Source: Pyxidicoccus trucidator
GTDB lineage: Bacteria > Myxococcota > Myxococcia > Myxococcales > Myxococcaceae
Reading direction: 5' to 3'
Assembly (NCBI RefSeq): GCF_010894435.1
Contig: NZ_JAAIXZ010000029.1
Location: forward strand, 62,001-126,000
Length of the DNA stretch: 64,000 bases
The notes beneath the pieces were generated by a model that ran no database searches, had not been told where the DNA came from, and was given only the letters and a program-made list of their open reading frames with translations. How positions within the stretch are numbered: position 1 is the first letter of the stretch; each line of letters begins with the position of its first letter. Made by a program: the position numbers and the translations under genes. This document shows, piece by piece, positions 51,401 to 62,601 of this stretch.

Positions 51401-54400
51401 CTACCCCTTCGCGCCGCCGGGCGCGGCGGGGACGAGCCCCGCGAGCGTCTCCACATAGGTGGCGGCCACGCGAAGGAAGCGGGCTCCACGGACGCCGGTG
51501 AGGTACTGCCGCTTCATGGCCCGGGTGGAGCCCACGTAGAACATGGCGCGGCGGATGCGCTCGATTTCCCGGGCGGAGCGCTCGCGGGCGCCCGCCATCC
51601 AGTTCTCCACGGAGTCCAGCGCGTCCAGCCCCGCGAAGAAGACGATGGGGCACTCGTGGCCCTTGCAGGAGAAGACGGTGGTGGCGCGCACGTGGTCCAC
51701 GCCGCTGACGCGGAAGTCCGTCACGTCCCGCCCCCCCTTGCCACCATAGGCCTCCGCGGGCACGCCGGCGCGGGTGAGGGCCTCGGTGTACTGGGAGGGC
51801 ATGACGGGGGCCACCACCAGGATGTCTCCGGGGTGGACGCCCTCCTCCCGGATGAGCCGGGCCACCTCCTTCGCCACCTGGCGCGCCTCGCTGGCGCTGG
51901 AGGCGAAGCCTCGCACCTGGGGTAGCACGCCACCGCGCTCGGTGGACTGGACGCGGAAGAGGCCCTCCAGCGTCTCCTCCGGCAGCCAGAGGAGCCCCTC
52001 CCGGGCCAGCTCCCCCACCTTCATGTACTCGCGCATGCCCGGCTCGCCCGCCTGGTGCTGGCGCAGCGGGTCCAGCACGACATTGAAGGCCACGTCGAGG
52101 ATGTCGCGGGTGGCGCGGAACGTCTCCTTGAGCACGCGAGTGCGGCCGCGGAAGGACAGCCCCTCGGGGAGCTGCTCCTTGAGCGCGTCGATGGGCACCT
52201 GGCCGTAGACGTTCTGCGAGTCGTCCATGAAGAGCTGGAAGCAGCGCACCTGCCGGCCGTCCGGCAGCGCGTAGGGGCGCACCAGGCCATGGAGGGAGGA
52301 CAGCGCCTTCGCGTCCATGTCCTGCGCCTCGTCCACGAAGACGGCGTCGAAGCTGCCGGGCTCCGGACGGCGCAGCGCCCCCACGTGCCGCACCGAGACG
52401 CGGGCGCGCAGCTCCCGCACCCGCTCGCGGCCCGCGCGCTGCACCAGCGCCTCCGTGAGCAGCTTGTCCACCAGCGGCGCCAGGGCCCGGTTGTAGAAGG
52501 AGATGAGCACCTGCGCCTCGCCGTGCTCCAGCAGGTAGCGCGCCACCCAGTGCGCCAGCACGTACGTCTTGCCGCTGCCCGCCACGCCGCGCACCAGGTG
52601 GTGCCCGTCATCGAAGCGCCGCTCGAAGAGGGACACCTGCTCGTGCGTGAAGAGGGGCCGCGCCGGACGCGCGCCCTCGATTTCGCCGCCCAGGCTGGCC
52701 GGCGCGGAGGGAGGCGGCGGCGGGGGTGGCGGCTGTTTCTGCGGAAGGGGCAGTGGCTCCAGGCGCAGCGGCTCGCTGGAGAGGACCCGCAGGCGGGGCA
52801 GCAACGCGAGGAAGCGCTGGGGGATGGTGGCGGCCCGGGCCTCGTCGCGCGAGGCCAGCACCAGCAGGTAGTCCCGCGCGCGGCTGGCGGCCACGTTGAG
52901 CATGGGCACCAGCGTGTGCGGCGGAAAGGGCCGCCCTCCGGCCACCGTGTCCACCAGCACCACGTCGTATTGGGTGCCCTGCTGGCGGTGGATGGTGGAC
53001 GCGCTGAAGACGTCCCCGCGCAGGCCGGCCGAGTTGCCCAACCGGCGCAGCAGGGCTGCCTGGGCGCGGTAGGGCGTGACACACAGGACGCTGAGACCCG
53101 AGCGCACCGCCTCTCGCGCCAGCGACACGGCGAGACTCGCGGACAGCTCGCGCTGGTAGCCGGAGCCTGTCTCCCCACGCCCATGGGTGAGGCGGCGGGG
53201 GTCTCTCGTCAGGCTGTCCAGCACCACCCAGCCGGCGCGCGTGGCGGGGAAGGCGGCCACGGGCGCCGGCTTCTCCGCGCGGGCGCGGACGATGTCGCCG
53301 TCCTGCAGCGCGCCGCCGTAGCAGAAGTGGCTCACCACCCGGGCGATGTCCGGGTGCATGCGGTGCTGGGTGCGCAGCAGCAGCACGTCCGGCCGCGCCG
53401 CATCCTTCACCGCGTCCTCCAGGTGCGACAGGCCGCTGGCGCGCAGCCACTTCTGCGTGTCCTTGCCGGCGCCCTCGGCGGCACGGCTCACCGGGCCAAT
53501 CTGCTTCGGGTCTCCGGCGAGCGTCACCCGCTCCGCCAGCGGCGCCAGCACCGCGGTGGCGGCGCGTGTCACCATGCCGGCCTCGTCCACCACCAGCCTC
53601 GAGAAGGTCCGCTTTCCCTCCAGCTCCGACACCAGGCGCAGGGCACGGTGCACGGTGAGCACCATCAGCGGGCAGTCGCCCTTCTCCGCCTCCTTCAGCG
53701 TGGGGTCCTTCACCTTGCCGCGCAGGCCGCGCAGCTCCGCCTGGAGCTTCGCCAGCTCGTGCGCGGGCCCCCCTCGCACGCGCTGGAGCATCAGCTCCCG
53801 CTCGCGGTCTTCGATGCTCGAGCGGAGCTTTCCGCCCTTCTGGCTGTCCTCGACGATGACGGTGGGCAGCTTCGCCAGCGCCTCGCTGGCGCCGGTGCCG
53901 CCCCGGAAGATGCTGCGCAGGGGGCGCAGGGGAATCGGCTCGCGCTCCAGCAGCGCGCTGATGCGCAGCACCAATTCGTCCGCGGCGCGGTTGGTGGGCG
54001 CCACCGCGAGGATGCGCTCGCCGGGGAACGCACGGAGGGAGCGGGCGATGAGGTCCGCGACGGCCGTCGTCTTGCCCGTGCCCGGCGGGCCCCAGATGCA
54101 GCCCCAGGGCTGACTCCACAGCCGGTCCGCTGGCAGCCGTTCCGCGTCCCGGGCCGACAGCTCGGGCGGAGTCTCCTCACCGCACGCGCGGCGCAGCGCC
54201 TGGGTGAGCGCGGGCTGCCGCTCCTCATATGCCGAGGCCGCCGCGCACAGCGCCTCCGCGAAGTCATAGGGCCGGTAGCACCAGCGCTCGGCGGAGAGGG
54301 CGCTCCGGTCCACGTCGTCGCCATGCCCGGGGGACGCGAAGACACGGCCCGACTCGAAGTCGAGGTGGACGACGTCGCCCCCGAAGACGCACTCCTCGCC

Positions 54401-54922
54401 ATGGAAGCCGAGCAGCGAGCCACCCGACCAGTCCGGGTCCGCCGCTGGCCGGGGGATGAGCGAGAGGACACCGGGCGACTGGAGGCTCACCTCGCGCACG
54501 TCCTGCAGCCGCTGCGCGCGGTACTGGCTGCGCTCGGCCATGAGCGCCTCGCGCAGGTCTTCCGGAAGGTACGCAGGGGGGGTCCAGACCTCACGGCGCT
54601 TTCCCGCCGCCACCGCGGCCTGCATGGCCTCACGCTCGGCCTGGCTGGCCTCCGCCGGCGCGGCGAGGTCCACGGCGGGCACGCCCTCGGAATCCACGGC
54701 CGCGGGCCCCGGCAGGCCAGGGCCCCGGGACACCTCGGGCCGTCCCCGCGTGGCGAGCGCATTGCGCGGACGCGATGGCGGCACCGGAGGGACGGCGCCG
54801 TGCCCGGGTGGCGCATCGTCGTATTCGATGCGGAGCTCGCGCGAGCCGCTCCCCGCCTCAGAGGAACTCCCGCCCTGCCCCACGGCCTCGTGGCCCCAAG
54901 CCCCGTCCGTCCCACGCATCAT
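51401..54922 (-). CDS. Double superfamily 1 helicase (UPF1-like plus UvrD-like) fusion
   Basis: 1173 residues. A disordered N-terminal 80 residues lead to a UPF1/DNA2-like helicase: Walker A GPPGTGKTT near 276, Walker B VVDEAGM near 442, GDPKQIGPVS, and STIHRQQGTQYDVVLVD with NVAASRARDYLLVLASR near 670. A Pro-rich linker (about 725-745) joins a second, UvrD-like helicase: GVAGSGKTYV near 778, FVDEAQDMDA near 860, VFSCKGHECPIVFFAGLD near 1081 and FYVGSTRAM. Both motor sets look complete. Single-gene unit. Domains of each type usually occur in separate proteins. Likely a nucleic-acid translocase; role unknown. Confidence 0.85.
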   Translation of the reverse strand: MMRGTDGAWGHEAVGQGGSSSEAGSGSRELRIEYDDAPPGHGAVPPVPPSRPRNALATRGRPEVSRGPGLPGPAAVDSEGVPAVDLAAPAEASQAEREAMQAAVAAGKRREVWTPPAYLPEDLREALMAERSQYRAQRLQDVREVSLQSPGVLSLIPRPAADPDWSGGSLLGFHGEECVFGGDVVHLDFESGRVFASPGHGDDVDRSALSAERWCYRPYDFAEALCAAASAYEERQPALTQALRRACGEETPPELSARDAERLPADRLWSQPWGCIWGPPGTGKTTAVADLIARSLRAFPGERILAVAPTNRAADELVLRISALLEREPIPLRPLRSIFRGGTGASEALAKLPTVIVEDSQKGGKLRSSIEDRERELMLQRVRGGPAHELAKLQAELRGLRGKVKDPTLKEAEKGDCPLMVLTVHRALRLVSELEGKRTFSRLVVDEAGMVTRAATAVLAPLAERVTLAGDPKQIGPVSRAAEGAGKDTQKWLRASGLSHLEDAVKDAARPDVLLLRTQHRMHPDIARVVSHFCYGGALQDGDIVRARAEKPAPVAAFPATRAGWVVLDSLTRDPRRLTHGRGETGSGYQRELSASLAVSLAREAVRSGLSVLCVTPYRAQAALLRRLGNSAGLRGDVFSASTIHRQQGTQYDVVLVDTVAGGRPFPPHTLVPMLNVAASRARDYLLVLASRDEARAATIPQRFLALLPRLRVLSSEPLRLEPLPLPQKQPPPPPPPPSAPASLGGEIEGARPARPLFTHEQVSLFERRFDDGHHLVRGVAGSGKTYVLAHWVARYLLEHGEAQVLISFYNRALAPLVDKLLTEALVQRAGRERVRELRARVSVRHVGALRRPEPGSFDAVFVDEAQDMDAKALSSLHGLVRPYALPDGRQVRCFQLFMDDSQNVYGQVPIDALKEQLPEGLSFRGRTRVLKETFRATRDILDVAFNVVLDPLRQHQAGEPGMREYMKVGELAREGLLWLPEETLEGLFRVQSTERGGVLPQVRGFASSASEARQVAKEVARLIREEGVHPGDILVVAPVMPSQYTEALTRAGVPAEAYGGKGGRDVTDFRVSGVDHVRATTVFSCKGHECPIVFFAGLDALDSVENWMAGARERSAREIERIRRAMFYVGSTRAMKRQYLTGVRGARFLRVAATYVETLAGLVPAAPGGAKG

Positions 54923-55503: not shown

Positions 55504-57546
55504 ATGCCCCCTCCGACCCGCTACGCCCATCCCTTCCTGCCCATCACCCGAGCCGACATGCAGGCGCGGGGCTGGGAGCAGTGCGACATCATCATCGTGA
55601 CGGGAGACGCGTACGTGGACCACCCGGCCTTCGGCCCGGTGCTCATCGCCCGCTTCCTGGAGGGCCGGGGCTTCAAGGTGGGGCTCATCCCCCAGCCGGA
55701 CTGGCACTCGGCCGAGCCCTTCAAGGCGCTGGGGCCGCCGCGCCTCTTCTTCGGGGTGGCCGCCGGCAACCTGGACTCGATGCTCAACCGGCTGACGGCC
55801 CAGAAGAAGAACCGCTCCGAGGACCAGTACAGCCCCGGTGGCCGCACCAACTGCCGGCCGGACCGCGCCACCATCGTCTACGCGCAGCGCTGCCGCGAGG
55901 CGTACCCGGAAGTGCCCATCATCCTGGGCGGCATCGAAGCCAGCCTCCGCCGCATCGCCCACTATGACTACTGGAGCGACAAGGTGCGCCGCTCCATCCT
56001 CTTCGACTCCAAGGCGGACCTGCTCGTCTTCGGCATGGGCGAGCGCCCCATCATGGAGGTCGCCGACCGGATGCGCCGTGGCGAGCGCATCCAGGACATC
56101 CGCGACGTGCGCGGCACCGCGTACACCATCAACGACGAGGAGATGCGCGCCCTGGAGGCGGACCCGGCGAAGCGCGCCGCGGACCGCAAGCCGGTGGTGC
56201 TGCCCGCCTACGAGGCGGTGGTGGCGGACAAGCAGGCCTTCGCGGTGATGAGCCGCGACTTCCAGATGGAGACCAACCCGGGCAACGCGCGGCCGCTCGC
56301 GCAGCGCCATGGCAACCGCGCCATCTACATGAACCCGCCCGCGCTCCCGCTGGAGGACGGCGTGGGCGCCTCCGACGCCGAGGGGCGCTCGGTGGCCATG
56401 GACGAGCTGTACGACTTGCCCTTCAACCGCGTCCCGCACCCCCTCTACAAGGACGAGGGCATCCCCGCGTACGAGACGGTGAAGCACTCCATCGTGCTGA
56501 TGCGCGGGTGCTTCGGCGGCTGCACCTTCTGCTCGATTACCGAGCACGAGGGCCGCGTCATCCAGAGCCGCTCCGCGGAGAGCGTGCTGCGCGAGGTGCG
56601 CGCGCTGCGGCGCATGGGCGACTTCCGCGGGACGATTACGGACCTCGGCGGCCCCACGGCCAACATGTACAAGCTCAAGTGCAAGAGCGAGGACATCGAG
56701 AAGAAGTGCCGCAAGCTGTCCTGCGTCCACCCGGGCGTCTGCGAGAATCTCCAGACGGACCACGGGCCGCTCATCAGCCTGATGCAGGAGGTGCGCAAGG
56801 AGGACGGCGTCAAGCACGTCTTCATCGCCAGCGGCGTGCGGTATGACCTGGCGGAGCGCTCACCCGAGTACGTGAAGGAGCTGGCCGCGCACCACGTGGG
56901 CGGGCAGCTGTCGGTGGCGCCCGAGCACGTGTCCAAGCGCGTGCTGGAGAAGATGAAGAAGCCGGGCATCGAGAGCTTCGAGCGCTTCCAGAACATGTTC
57001 GCCTGCGCCAGCGAGGAGGCCGGCAAGGAGCAGTACGACATCCCCTACTTCATCAGCGGCCACCCGGGCTCCACGCTGGAGGACATGGTGGAGCTGGCGC
57101 TGTGGCTGAAGAAGAACGGGAAGCGGCCCCGGCAGGTACAGGACTTCATCCCCACCCCCATGGCCATGGCCACGGCCATGTACTACTCGGGCATGGACCC
57201 GCTGAAGATGGAGCCCGTGTACACGGCGCAGGGCCTGCGCGAGAAGAAGCTCCAGAAGGCGCTGCTGCTCTACTGGAACCCGGAGCAGTGGCCCCTGGCG
57301 CGCGAGGCGCTGATTCAGGCCGGCCGCGAGGACCTCATCGGCCGGGGTCCGCAGGCACTGGTGCCGCCCGAGACGCCCGCCGAGGCCGCCCGCCGCCAGC
57401 GTGCCGAACAGCGGGACGACGAGGACGGGCCGCGCCAGCCGAAAGCCTCCGCGCCCCGGCAGCACGCCGGTCCCCGCCCGGGAGGCAACGGCCCGGCCCG
57501 GCCCGGCGCGCGTCGCCCTGGTGGACCGGGTCCCCGGCCGCGCTGA
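55504..57546 (+). CDS. YgiQ-family radical SAM protein
   Basis: 680 residues. An N-terminal domain ([57 protein letters not shown]) precedes the radical SAM domain with CxxxCxxC in [18 protein letters not shown], coordinating a 4Fe-4S cluster and SAM. Later blocks ([59 protein letters not shown]) match YgiQ closely. The C-terminal 60 residues are a Pro/Arg/Gly-rich disordered tail, which is longer than usual. The enzymatic product is not known. It lies alone between a small gene and a lipoprotein gene. Confidence 0.93.
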
Positions 57547-57584: not shown

Positions 57585-58337
57585 ATGCGTCACGCGAGCA
57601 GGGTGCTGGGACTGGGCTGTGTGCTGGGATTGATGGCCGGTTGCGCCGGGGGGTCGAAGTCCCTGGCGTCCAGGGACACCGCGGCGTCACAGGACACCGC
57701 GGCGTCGAAGGACACCGCCTCGGAGTCCACGGAACCGAAGCCCACCTGTCCGGAGACGATTTCCGACGAGCCGAACCTGGAGCTGGAGCTCCGGCCGGAG
57801 CTGAACGCCCGCACCTGGGTTCCCGCGCTCACCTTCGAGCACTTCGGGTTCAAGTCTCCTGAAGCGGTGAAGCCGGCCTTCCAGCAGGAGCTGGCGCTCG
57901 CGACGGGGCCGGTGCGCGCGTTCGGGCTGGTGCGGCGCAGCCTGAATGGCCCGGAGGGCGGTGGCTCGCTGGTGCTGGCACGCCCTCACGCGGGTGGGTT
58001 CTGCGTGGTGAACACCTGGTCCACGTGGCTCCCGTCGCGGGTGGAGCTGTCGCTCGCCAACACCTGGACATCCCAGGACGGGCGGCTGTCCATCCTCCTG
58101 GTGAGAATGGACCTGAAGGAGTCGCCCGACGGGCCGCAGACGCGCTGGGTGGCGCTGGGCACGGATGGCGGACGCATGTGGGTTGCCCTGGGCAATCCCC
58201 CGGAGCACCAGCTCATCGTCCCCTCGCTAACGCTCTTCCCGAACGGAAGCGACCTCTACCTGGACATCAAGCAGCGCTACATCACCCGGCTGCGGCTGGG
58301 AAAGGACGGGCGCTTCGTCATCCCGCCCGCGCCGTGA
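57585..58337 (+). CDS. Hypothetical lipoprotein
   Basis: 250 residues with signal and lipobox in LGCVLGLMAGCAGG (Cys20). The mature N-terminus has short repeats (DTAASQDTAASKDTAS), a disordered spacer, then a beta-rich domain (LELELRPELNARTWVPAL, GGSLVLARPHAGGFCVVNTW, RWVALGTDGGRMWVALG). GGAGG lies five bases before the ATG. I do not recognise the family. It follows YgiQ after 38 bases and may be its own unit. The 11-residue repeat-like spacer could vary in length. Confidence 0.7.
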   Translation: MRHASRVLGLGCVLGLMAGCAGGSKSLASRDTAASQDTAASKDTASESTEPKPTCPETISDEPNLELELRPELNARTWVPALTFEHFGFKSPEAVKPAFQQELALATGPVRAFGLVRRSLNGPEGGGSLVLARPHAGGFCVVNTWSTWLPSRVELSLANTWTSQDGRLSILLVRMDLKESPDGPQTRWVALGTDGGRMWVALGNPPEHQLIVPSLTLFPNGSDLYLDIKQRYITRLRLGKDGRFVIPPAP

Positions 58338-58393
58338 CGGCTGACGCGTCCGCGGATTGAATAAATCCCCGGCCCCTTCGTCGGGGGCTCACC

Positions 58394-59011
58394 ATGCTCT
58401 CTCTGCTCGCCATGCTCTGGTTGGCCTCCACCCCCGTGGAGTCGCCCACGCCGCCCGCACCGCGGCCCCCTCCGCCCCAGTGTCTTTCCTCCCAGGGGCG
58501 GACGGTGTGCGGGTACCAGTGCAAGTCCACCGGAACGAGTGCGGCCTGTGCCAGGACTCCCTATGGGGTGTGCCAGGTGCTGGCCGGTAGCGTCCATTGC
58601 TGGGACCCGCCGCGAGTCGTCATCCACCACCCGGCCAGCTCGGGCGCGAAGCCCGAGTGCAAGGAGAGCCGGGGTCAGGTGGCCTGCGGCTACAACTGCC
58701 GTATCTTCAACGGTGAGGTGGCCTGCAACCGCACTCCGTACGGGGTGTGCACCACCCACTTCAGCCGCCTCGTCTGCTGGGACCCGCCGGAGAGCGTCAT
58801 CCACCAGTACGGCGCGGAGACGCCCGCGCCCCGCTGTCTCAACGCCTCGGAGGCGGTGGGCTGTGGCTATGACTGCAAGGCCACGCGCGCGGAGGTGCAG
58901 TGCGCCAGCACGCCAGACGGCGTGTGCCGGCTCGACAAGGAGCGCTTCACCTGCTTCGACCCGCCGTCGCTGCTGCACTGCGACCACAGCGCGCCGCCGC
59001 CCGCGAACTGA
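58394..59011 (+). CDS. Secreted protein with three cysteine-rich repeats
   Basis: 205 residues. A short hydrophobic start (LSLLAMLWLAS) acts as a signal, then a Pro-rich linker. Three repeats of about 55-60 residues each carry a common pattern: C-x-G-x-V-x-C-G-Y-x-C-K, then VACxRTPYGVC, then C-W/F-DPP (for example CGYQCK, CGYNCR, CGYDCK; PYGVCQ, PYGVCT, PDGVCR; HCWDPP, VCWDPP, TCFDPP). Each repeat holds six cysteines, so three disulfides per repeat are likely. Other families with such repeats bind sugars or proteins, but I cannot match this one. A GGGGG ribosome site precedes the ATG. Confidence 0.75.
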   Translation: MLSLLAMLWLASTPVESPTPPAPRPPPPQCLSSQGRTVCGYQCKSTGTSAACARTPYGVCQVLAGSVHCWDPPRVVIHHPASSGAKPECKESRGQVACGYNCRIFNGEVACNRTPYGVCTTHFSRLVCWDPPESVIHQYGAETPAPRCLNASEAVGCGYDCKATRAEVQCASTPDGVCRLDKERFTCFDPPSLLHCDHSAPPPAN

Positions 59012-59233
59012 CGAAGTTGGCCCGACCCGCCAGGGGGCAGGCAGTCAGCAGACCTCCAGCGCGCCCCCGGTGGAGCACCCGAAGCCCGGAAGCGCGCCAC
59101 GCCGCACCCCTGGCGTAAAGCAGCCGGCCAGCCTGCGCGGCAGCGGAACGGAAGCGGCCGATGTGGCACCATGGCGCCACACCCCTCGCTCCCGAAACGC
59201 ACGTCTCTCGTCGCGGTGGGCGGCCCTTCGGTC

Positions 59234-60367
59234 ATGACTTCTTCCGGCCATCTCAGGCAGCGCCGTCCCCAGGCCTGGGCCTGGGTGTGGCTGCTCGCGC
59301 TCGGCCTCGCCTGCACGCGAGAGCGCCCGCCGCCCCTCACGCACGAGGCCTACGTGTGGCAGCGCGACTGGAGCCCGGAGCTGAGCCGCGGCCTCGCGGA
59401 GGTGCCCACGGAACTCGGAGCGCTGCGAGTCCTCGCCCGCGAGCGCTCCGGCCCCACGCGGACTCCCGTGGACATCGCGGTGGACGTGGAGGCCCTGGCG
59501 CGCTCGGGCCGCGAGGTGGTGGCGGTGATGCGGGTGGACGGCACGGCGCCACTCGACGGCATCTCCCTCCAGGAGGTCGCCCTCCATGCCCGCGCCTGGA
59601 AGGCCCGGGGCGTCCGGGTCCGCGGCATCGAGGTGGACCATGACTGCGCGACCGCCGCGCTGGCTGGCTACGTGGACTGGCTGAAGCGCGAGCGGGCCTC
59701 CCTGGAAGGCCTGACGCTCTCCATCACCGCCCTGCCCACCTGGGCCTCCTCTCCGGACGTGGAGCGCCTGGTCTCCGTCGCCGACGACGTCGTCCTCCAG
59801 GTCCACGCGGTGCGCGCGCCCACGCTCTTCACCCCCGAGGAGGCACGAGGGTTCGTCGAGGACTGGTCGAAGGCCACCCGTGCCGCCCAACGGCCCTTCC
59901 GCGTCGCCCTCCCCACCTACCGCGTCCGGCTGCGCGATGGGACTCGCCTCTCCGCGGAGCCCCGCGACGTGTCCCGCTTCCTGGCGCTGCTGCATGAGCG
60001 CCCCGTGCGCGGCGTAACGGGTGTCCTCTGGTTCCGGCTCGGCCACCGTGGAGACCCGGACGCCTGGAGCCTGCCCACGCTGGCGGCGGTGGTGCGTGGC
60101 GAGTCGCTGGAACCGAGCCTCACGCCTGCCCTCGTGGACGCTGGGGGTGGGACGCGGGACATCGTCATCGAGAACACCGGCCGCGTGGACGCGGATGCGC
60201 CCGCGCGCCTCACCCTCTCTGGAAACCTGGAGGTCCTGGACGGTGTGGGCGGCTACGCCCCGCACGGGGCCTCCCTCGTGGCGCGCACGCCTCCCCGCCT
60301 GCGCGCCGGCGAGCGACGTGTCATCGGCTTCGTGCGGGGAACCGAGGTGTCACTTGCCGTGCCGTAG
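59234..60367 (+). CDS. DUF3142 lipoprotein
   Basis: 377 residues from the ATG at 59234, which starts the lipoprotein signal (MTSSGHLRQRRPQAW, then WVWLLALGLACTRE, Cys at about 28). A GTG or ATG near 59171 gives a longer version with an improbable leader. The DUF3142 body contains HEAYVWQRDWSPELSRGL, VRVRGIEVDHDCATAALAGY, LTLSITALPTWASSP, VLQVHAVRAPTLFTPE and GVLWFRLGHRGDPDAWSL, the fold being a TIM-barrel-like glycosidase-related one with unknown activity. It overlaps the next gene by 14 bases. Confidence 0.85.
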   Translation: MTSSGHLRQRRPQAWAWVWLLALGLACTRERPPPLTHEAYVWQRDWSPELSRGLAEVPTELGALRVLARERSGPTRTPVDIAVDVEALARSGREVVAVMRVDGTAPLDGISLQEVALHARAWKARGVRVRGIEVDHDCATAALAGYVDWLKRERASLEGLTLSITALPTWASSPDVERLVSVADDVVLQVHAVRAPTLFTPEEARGFVEDWSKATRAAQRPFRVALPTYRVRLRDGTRLSAEPRDVSRFLALLHERPVRGVTGVLWFRLGHRGDPDAWSLPTLAAVVRGESLEPSLTPALVDAGGGTRDIVIENTGRVDADAPARLTLSGNLEVLDGVGGYAPHGASLVARTPPRLRAGERRVIGFVRGTEVSLAVP

Positions 60368-62409: not shown

Positions 62410-62601
62410 TCACCCCACCGCGAGGTTGAGCGCGTAGAAGTACAGGTCCACGTAGGACTGGAGCGCCTCGAAGAGGAGCCGGGTGAAGGGCCAGCCCATG
62501 AAGCCCACCACCGTGCCCACCATCAGCAGGGTGACGATGAGGGCGTACTCCACCATGGCCTGACCGCGCCGCGCGGCCGTGCGTCGCAGGGGCTGCTTCA
62601 T
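62410..62601 (-). CDS. Flp/TadE-like pilin-type small protein
   Basis: 63 residues. The type IVb/TadE-like N-terminal pattern is GQAMVEYALIVTLLMVGTVVG, with a basic leader before it and one hydrophobic helix after the Glu; the rest is short (FEALQSYVDLYFYALNLAVG). It would be processed by a prepilin peptidase and assembled by a Tad-like system. Its ATG overlaps the stop of the preceding gene (62598-62601). No Tad ATPase or secretin is visible in the window, but the cluster runs off its end. Confidence 0.8.
   Translation of the reverse strand: MKQPLRRTAARRGQAMVEYALIVTLLMVGTVVGFMGWPFTRLLFEALQSYVDLYFYALNLAVG

What the first reader, a model, noticed from the sequence alone, without database searches (positions are those of the whole stretch)
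58394..59011. Triplicated six-cysteine repeat protein
Seen: three units with CGYxC, PxGVC and CxDPP landmarks, each with six Cys. I cannot match a family. It may be a secreted binder or a defence or predation factor.
Basis: partly seen in the sequence, partly recalled or inferred. Interest (0 to 1): 0.5.

Follow-up and report, generated by a model that had tools for sequence, protein, structure and literature searches.

The report
Exported disulfide-hairpin repeat protein, myxobacteria
This gene encodes a small exported myxobacterial protein built of three similar six-cysteine units from a protein family not yet catalogued, and it sits behind a conserved switch sequence shared mainly with genes for other outer-envelope proteins.

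Summary
In detail: ORF 58394-59011 (+), 205 aa, has three 59-residue units, each C-x8-CGYxC-x8-C-x7-C-x8-CxDPP. Lag-59 identity is 52 of 146, against a shuffle maximum of 23. No curated family or solved structure matches. The gene occurs in 27 of 27 genomes of its genus, beside a 4-unit paralogue. Units of this kind occur in 89 of 195 Myxococcota genomes.

Each unit appears to be three C-x8-C beta-hairpins. Glycine is favoured at the turn, spacing between hairpins is invariant, and low-confidence AF2 models place strands there.

The new finding is a promoter-like element, TGAATAAA-N13-CGTC, ending 11 nt before the ATG. It has 75 exact sites in 27 genus genomes against 0 for the reversed control, and 129 against 2 in the family. 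Nearly all inspected sites precede genes for exported proteins. I infer an unidentified ECF-type sigma regulon of envelope proteins, in which this is a disulfide-stapled, probably dimeric, surface or periplasmic scaffold. Function is inferred, not shown. Defence or toxin roles have no support.

The parts
58394..59011 (+). CDS, 205 aa, three-unit six-cysteine repeat protein
   Evidence: ORF and composition; orthologues in 27 of 27 genus genomes
58358..58382 (+). promoter-like element TGAATAAA-N13-CGTC (-35-like 58358-58365, -10-like 58379-58382), 11 nt before the ATG; ECF sigma type inferred
   Evidence: only match of a looser pattern in the window, 0 in 100 shuffles; conserved upstream of orthologues; 75 sites against 0 control in the genus
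58394..58444 (+). hydrophobic N-terminus, probable signal peptide (MLSLLAMLWLASTPVES; no charged n-region; cleavage site uncertain)
   Evidence: sequence; conserved ML[SP]-hydrophobic start in orthologues; typical signal peptides in distant relatives
58445..58480 (+). proline-rich spacer, residues 18-29
   Evidence: sequence
58481..58618 (+). unit 1 (residues 30-75): hairpins 30-39, 43-52, 60-69
58658..58795 (+). unit 2 (residues 89-134): hairpins 89-98, 102-111, 119-128
58835..58972 (+). unit 3 (residues 148-193): hairpins 148-157, 161-170, 178-187
58979..58981 (+). codon of the conserved nineteenth cysteine (Cys196, LLHCDH), predicted unpaired within the chain
   Evidence: 19 Cys in 33 of the 37 distinct ORFs that the pattern counts as three-unit
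57585..58337 (+). neighbour: lipoprotein (LMAGC lipobox), present only in a subset of relatives; not part of the system
55504..57546 (+). neighbour: YgiQ-like radical SAM protein (name recalled), next to the gene in the genus but not seen beside it in other genera
59222..60367 (+). neighbour: DUF3142 protein

Best explanation
The gene encodes an exported, disulfide-stapled repeat protein of the cell envelope. After Sec export each 46-residue unit folds as three consecutive C-x8-C beta-hairpins, each locked by its own disulfide (C1-C2, C3-C4, C5-C6), so the mature protein is three rigid beads joined by short linkers. A conserved nineteenth cysteine at the C-terminus is left over and probably links two chains or joins a partner. 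Transcription starts from a conserved TGAATAAA-N13-CGTC promoter used by an unidentified ECF-type sigma factor, which also drives an OmpW-like barrel, a CARDB/Ig-domain lipoprotein and other exported proteins. The likeliest job is a protease-resistant structural or binding scaffold at the outer membrane, surface or periplasm, made as part of an envelope programme. Shown: repeat anatomy, conservation, the element and its shared use. Inferred: hairpin pairing, dimerisation, the sigma factor, location and role.
For: Repeat. Spacing between hairpins is fixed (C2-C3 3 and C4-C5 7 in 162 of 162 six-Cys units, out of 171 aligned); length changes occur only inside hairpins (C3-C4 9 in 2, C5-C6 9 or 10 in 9). 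Gly at the fifth residue after the first Cys in 65%, 45% and 58% of hairpins 1, 2, 3, and V/I/L common at the seventh. AF2 strands bracket every hairpin of the unit model, turn at positions 4-5 after the first Cys, and most in the full model. Distant relatives add Cys as a further hairpin: L090 and L091 have a fourth. Export. Element: 29 of 34 listed upstream regions exact; 75 against 0 in 27 genus genomes; 129 against 2 in 96 family genomes. Downstream genes look exported in 22 of 24 loci from other genera and, by a lenient score, at 90 of 93 distinct sites against 24 of 47 window genes and 20 of 50 flank genes. Partners: OMP_b-brl/OmpW, CARDB and Big_6. Extra Cys. Purifying selection: median dN/dS 0.37 over 406 pairs.
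Against: Both AF2 models are weak (mean pLDDT 57.5 and 38.7), the first hairpin of unit 3 is missing in the full model, and no coordinates were given, so no S-S distance was measured. The N-terminus lacks the usual positive charge of a signal peptide. No sigma factor was identified. Two of 24 outside sites precede non-exported genes (L195, L201) and 3 of 9 one-mismatch sites in this genome do not look exported (L117, L118, L121). The 4-unit paralogue lacks the element. The export score takes the best start within 160 nt of a site, which flatters it, and the sites are orthologous rather than independent. dN/dS exceeds 0.5 in 51 of 406 pairs, so constraint is moderate.
Confidence: 0.5

Rival explanations
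1. A secreted binder or inhibitor (for example of a protease or a glycan): each unit displays hairpin loops that bind a target, and tandem units give avidity.
For: Stapled hairpins are good display scaffolds (general knowledge). Positions between the cysteines vary much more than the cysteines. Three units stay distinct: same-position identity is highest on the diagonal between genera g1 and g32 and between g1 and g8. This overlaps with the best explanation.
Against: No known inhibitor or lectin family matches. No conserved reactive-site motif apart from TPxG and DPP. The position signal fades in more distant genera (g33, g37).
Confidence: 0.2
2. A predation factor or antimicrobial toxin released to kill prey or rivals.
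For: The host is a predatory lineage (general knowledge) and the product is small, probably exported and disulfide-rich.
Against: Single copy in 27 of 27 genus genomes, no cognate immunity gene at a conserved neighbouring position, purifying selection, no match in the phages, plasmids or viral contigs searched, and the element is shared with barrels and lipoproteins.
Confidence: 0.08
3. A metal-binding or thiol-redox protein in which the cysteines are ligands or are reactive.
For: 19 cysteines, a His after each unit (VIHH, VIHQ, LLHCDH), and known metal-responsive ECF sigma factors (CorE, CorE2) in Myxococcus (PMC8999054, passages).
Against: C-x8-C and C-x3-C spacing is not a usual metal site and exported cysteines normally form disulfides (general knowledge). 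CorE promoters carry an AAC in the -35 region (PMC3107203, passages) while this element has GAAT, so it is not CorE-like on that feature.
Confidence: 0.07
4. The conserved upstream element is not a sigma-factor promoter but an operator or an RNA element.
For: No sigma factor was linked to it; in some loci including the window the sequence around it could form a GC-rich stem (by eye).
Against: Fixed two-block spacing, one orientation relative to the gene, variable distance to the start codon (about 10 nt for this gene, about 30-110 nt for others), and a CGTC box of ECF -10 type (recalled).
Confidence: 0.2

Closest known systems
DUF6464 (PF20065)
   Same: Nearest Pfam trace: E 0.06 to the 4-unit paralogue, 0.024 to a distant relative; cyanobacterial by recall, and over its cut-off in one of 14 control genomes
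   Different: Below the curated cut-off everywhere tested (8.3-17.5 against 25 bits) and no match at all to the window protein; function unknown
Myxobacterial disulfide repeats of the DUF4215 / TIGR02232 type, as in TraA (recalled)
   Same: Tandem Cys-rich repeats in exported myxobacterial proteins
   Different: No match to any Pfam or NCBIfam model; different spacing, no CDDGN-type core (recalled)
Designed disulfide-cyclised C-x8-C beta-hairpin peptides (recalled)
   Same: Ten-residue C-x8-C loop with a two-residue turn at positions 5-6
   Different: Isolated synthetic peptides; here three in a row per natural unit
CorE / CorE2 ECF regulons of Myxococcus (PMC3107203, PMC8999054, passages read)
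   Same: Two-block ECF-type promoters in the same lineage
   Different: -35 region with AAC, copper or cadmium/zinc response; the element here has TGAATAAA and CGTC

Membership tests
Any curated Pfam or NCBIfam family | score above the curated cut-off | tested here: not met
   0 families for the window protein in either library; relatives have only sub-threshold matches in the repeat region
Plain lectin repeat | match to a lectin model or fold | tested here: not met
   no sequence match; fold search of a weak model gave nothing at E 0.001 or better
DUF6464 (PF20065) | 25-bit cut-off | tested here: not met
   17.5 bits in the own genome, at the paralogue only
Exported (Sec) protein | signal peptide | tested here: inconclusive
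   hydrophobic N-terminus without charged n-region; no dedicated predictor available; relatives have typical ones
ECF sigma-dependent gene | conserved two-block element at fixed spacing upstream | tested here: met
ECF sigma-dependent gene | dependence on a named sigma factor; mapped transcription start | not testable with these tools
   needs RNA data
CorE regulon | AAC in the -35 region | tested here: not met
   PMC3107203 passages; the window element reads GAAT
Disulfide-stapled triple-hairpin unit | strands on both sides of each C-x8-C | tested here: inconclusive
   seen in the unit model, mean pLDDT 57.5, and in most of the full model, 38.7

The most novel reading that the evidence does not exclude
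A conserved, undescribed ECF-type envelope regulon of Myxococcaceae (TGAATAAA-N13-CGTC) whose members include an uncatalogued family of tandem disulfide-stapled triple-hairpin proteins. The three-bead protein dimerises through its odd cysteine and forms a cross-linked protein layer or tether at the cell surface.
Probability: 0.25. Interest if true: 0.65.

Novelty: new variant of a known kind. Interest (0 to 1): 0.5.

Why it matters
It defines a protein unit absent from the curated libraries searched, with a simple structural hypothesis that disulfide mapping can test, and attaches it to a compact, genus-wide promoter signature shared by envelope proteins. If confirmed, the signature gives a way into an ECF regulon in a model social predator and a first functional context for a conserved gene of unknown function.

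Tried and rejected
Operon function: rejected. The YgiQ-like neighbour adjoins the gene in the genus, but the lipoprotein lies there only in a subset and neither was found beside it in other genera. Mobile or phage origin: no match in phages, plasmids or viral contigs. CorE regulon: rejected on the -35 box. Sigma-70 promoter, terminator and Rfam element: none found. Fold search of the unit model: 27 matches, none at E 0.001 or better, no weight given. PDB profile hits: a designed protein sharing an 11-residue CxDP stretch and two other chains, taken as chance. DUF4124, Defensin and similar weak Pfam hits in relatives: below cut-off. The third hit (L003, E 0.035) overlaps a long ORF for a WD/propeller-like lipoprotein on the other strand and was not recovered by the unit profile: chance. 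Relatives outside Myxococcota: not testable; the one scan of genome contigs found eight loci, one labelled Comamonas (see noticed items). Papers: 7 searches, none whose listing describes this protein or this element; only passages of PMC3107203 and PMC8999054 were read, all others were seen as search listings. The Myxococcus xanthus locus tag could not be assigned, so expression papers could not be checked.

Full report
1. Observation. The ORF is real and exactly placed: 58394-59011 (+), 205 aa, GC3 0.90, 19 cysteines. Three units share the spacing C-x8-C-x3-C-x8-C-x7-C-x8-C with a 59-residue period. Identity at that lag is 52 of 146 against a shuffle mean of 9.4 and maximum of 23. Units are 19-21 of 45 identical in protein and 72-77 of 135 in DNA, so they are old duplicates. 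A nineteenth cysteine (Cys196) follows unit 3.

2. Family. No Pfam or NCBIfam model matches the protein at E 10 or better; the PHROGs match is noise; PDB sequence searches give nothing credible. The genome holds a 4-unit paralogue (L002, 270 aa) and no further copy. In the relatives search, 36 of 61 genomes match, including 27 of 27 of the genus. With a unit profile, 89 of 195 Myxococcota genomes match: 81 of 96 in the family, 3 elsewhere in the order and 5 elsewhere in the phylum (grouping counted by me). Relatives carry 2, 3 or 4 units, or hairpins fused to other domains: TPR in L092 and a DUF2799-like N-terminus in L091, the latter below its cut-off. One genus, g31, shows exactly 4 units in all 16 genomes listed, which suggests it keeps only the paralogue (inference).

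3. Anatomy of the unit. Among 171 profile-aligned units, 162 have six cysteines. In all 162, C1-C2 is 8, C2-C3 is 3 and C4-C5 is 7; only C3-C4 (9 in 2 units) and C5-C6 (9 in 5, 10 in 4) vary. The other nine are truncated matches or distant relatives. Within each C-x8-C the fifth residue after the first Cys is Gly in 65%, 45% and 58% of hairpins 1, 2 and 3, and V, I or L are common at the seventh. In the most distant full units the loop reads C-x3-YG-x3-C, often three times over. A two-residue turn at positions 5-6 of the ten-residue loop puts the two cysteines opposite each other at a non-hydrogen-bonded pair, the favourable site for a cross-strand disulfide (established knowledge, recalled). 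AF2 on 21 aligned units places strands on both sides of all three loops, with mean pLDDT only 57.5. The full-length model repeats this for units 1 and 2 but lacks the first hairpin of unit 3, with pLDDT 38.7. I used only window and the search for related loci sequences there, as the tool requires, so the alignments were shallow. Relatives L090 and L091 add a fourth hairpin with its own Cys pair. All this favours C1-C2, C3-C4, C5-C6 pairing, but no disulfide was observed.

4. Odd cysteine. Of the distinct ORFs in hand that the pattern counts as three-unit, 33 of 37 have 19 cysteines from the first unit on, 3 have 18 and 1 has 20; that last one is a frame-broken 4-unit gene (L072). Of 11 counted as four-unit, 9 have 26. 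So three-unit proteins of the genus and of several sister genera carry one cysteine that cannot pair within the chain if all units are closed. I predict a homodimer or a bond to a partner.

5. Export. The N-terminus MLSLLAMLWLASTP is hydrophobic but lacks a charged n-region; orthologues keep it. Distant relatives have textbook signal peptides. No signal-peptide predictor was available.

6. Promoter element. Of 34 upstream regions listed, 29 hold TGAATAAA-N13-CGTC exactly, 2 have N14 (L038, L097), 2 have small changes (L015, L036), and 1 is weak (L080). In the window it is 58358-58382, ending 11 nt before the ATG, and the window has no other match to a looser form, with 0 in 100 shuffles. In the genome there are 4 exact sites. 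Across 27 genus genomes there are 75 sites (sum of the rows) and 0 for the pattern read backwards. Across 96 genomes of the family there are 129 sites in 54 genomes against 2 for the control (sums mine). No sigma-70-like site was found near the gene.

7. What shares the element. Genus sites fall into this gene, an 'ARFGKR' exported protein, a CARDB/Big_6 lipoprotein, an OMP_b-brl/OmpW-like barrel, and three singletons (a signal-peptide protein and two lipoproteins). All of these look exported by inspection. As a check in other genera, 22 of the 24 loci returned there, of 54 sites, precede a signal-peptide or lipobox protein; L195 and L201 do not. The other 30 sites were not inspected, apart from two that lie before this gene. 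With a crude hydrophobicity score, 90 of 93 distinct sites with enough downstream sequence pass, against 24 of 47 likely genes in the window and 20 of 50 in flanks. The site score takes the best start within 160 nt and the sites are related by descent, so this is support, not a probability. Of 9 one-mismatch sites in the own genome, 6 precede proteins that look exported and 3 do not. Three of the six (L114, L115, L116) resemble genes with exact sites elsewhere (L185/L202, L188/L205, L194) by their N-termini. The 4-unit paralogues show no such element, so the regulon membership is specific to this gene. Two distant relatives show TGAAT and CGTC at the same spacing upstream (L087, L089), seen by eye.

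8. Mechanism. The most economical reading is an ECF-type sigma factor that recognises TGAAT(AAA) and CGTC and turns on a set of envelope proteins, this one among them. CorE is unlikely, because its -35 region has AAC (PMC3107203, passages). Which sigma factor acts was not found. Within the regulon the protein most likely serves as a stable scaffold at the outer membrane, surface or periplasm. The constraint is purifying but moderate (median dN/dS 0.37 over 406 pairs, 51 above 0.5). Nothing points to a toxin, defence or mobile element.

9. Known or new. The protein is a new variant of a known kind (exported disulfide-rich tandem repeats), with a unit not found in the libraries searched. The regulon signature was not found in seven paper searches, which cover open-licence full text only, so it may be described elsewhere.

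Noticed in passing
L009 (BNCN01000001.1): A contig labelled Comamonas sp. KCTC 72670 carries the myxobacterial gene and its YgiQ neighbour; its length equals contig C1 of G025, placed in the window's genus. The label is probably wrong.
   Followed up: partly
L002 1465-2277: The 4-unit paralogue stands divergently beside a TauE/SafE-like permease gene (name recalled) in this genome, and the permease gene adjoins the paralogue in several other genera too.
   Followed up: partly
L111 586-1452 (-): Exported protein with EARFGKRS after the signal peptide and an Asp-rich stretch; second commonest holder of the element in the genus, no Pfam match.
   Followed up: partly
window 62410-62601 (-): 63-aa ORF with GQAMVEYALIVTLL, like a Flp-type pilin prepilin motif (recalled).
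   Followed up: no
L091, L090, L093: Lipoproteins with a DUF2799-like N-terminus followed by C-x8-C hairpins in other lineages of the phylum.
   Followed up: partly
window 51401-54922 (-): 1173-aa protein that looks like two helicase/ATPase halves fused head to tail (by eye).
   Followed up: no
window 57585-58337: Lipoprotein gene present between the YgiQ-like gene and the repeat gene only in a subset of relatives, a recent gain or loss.
   Followed up: partly
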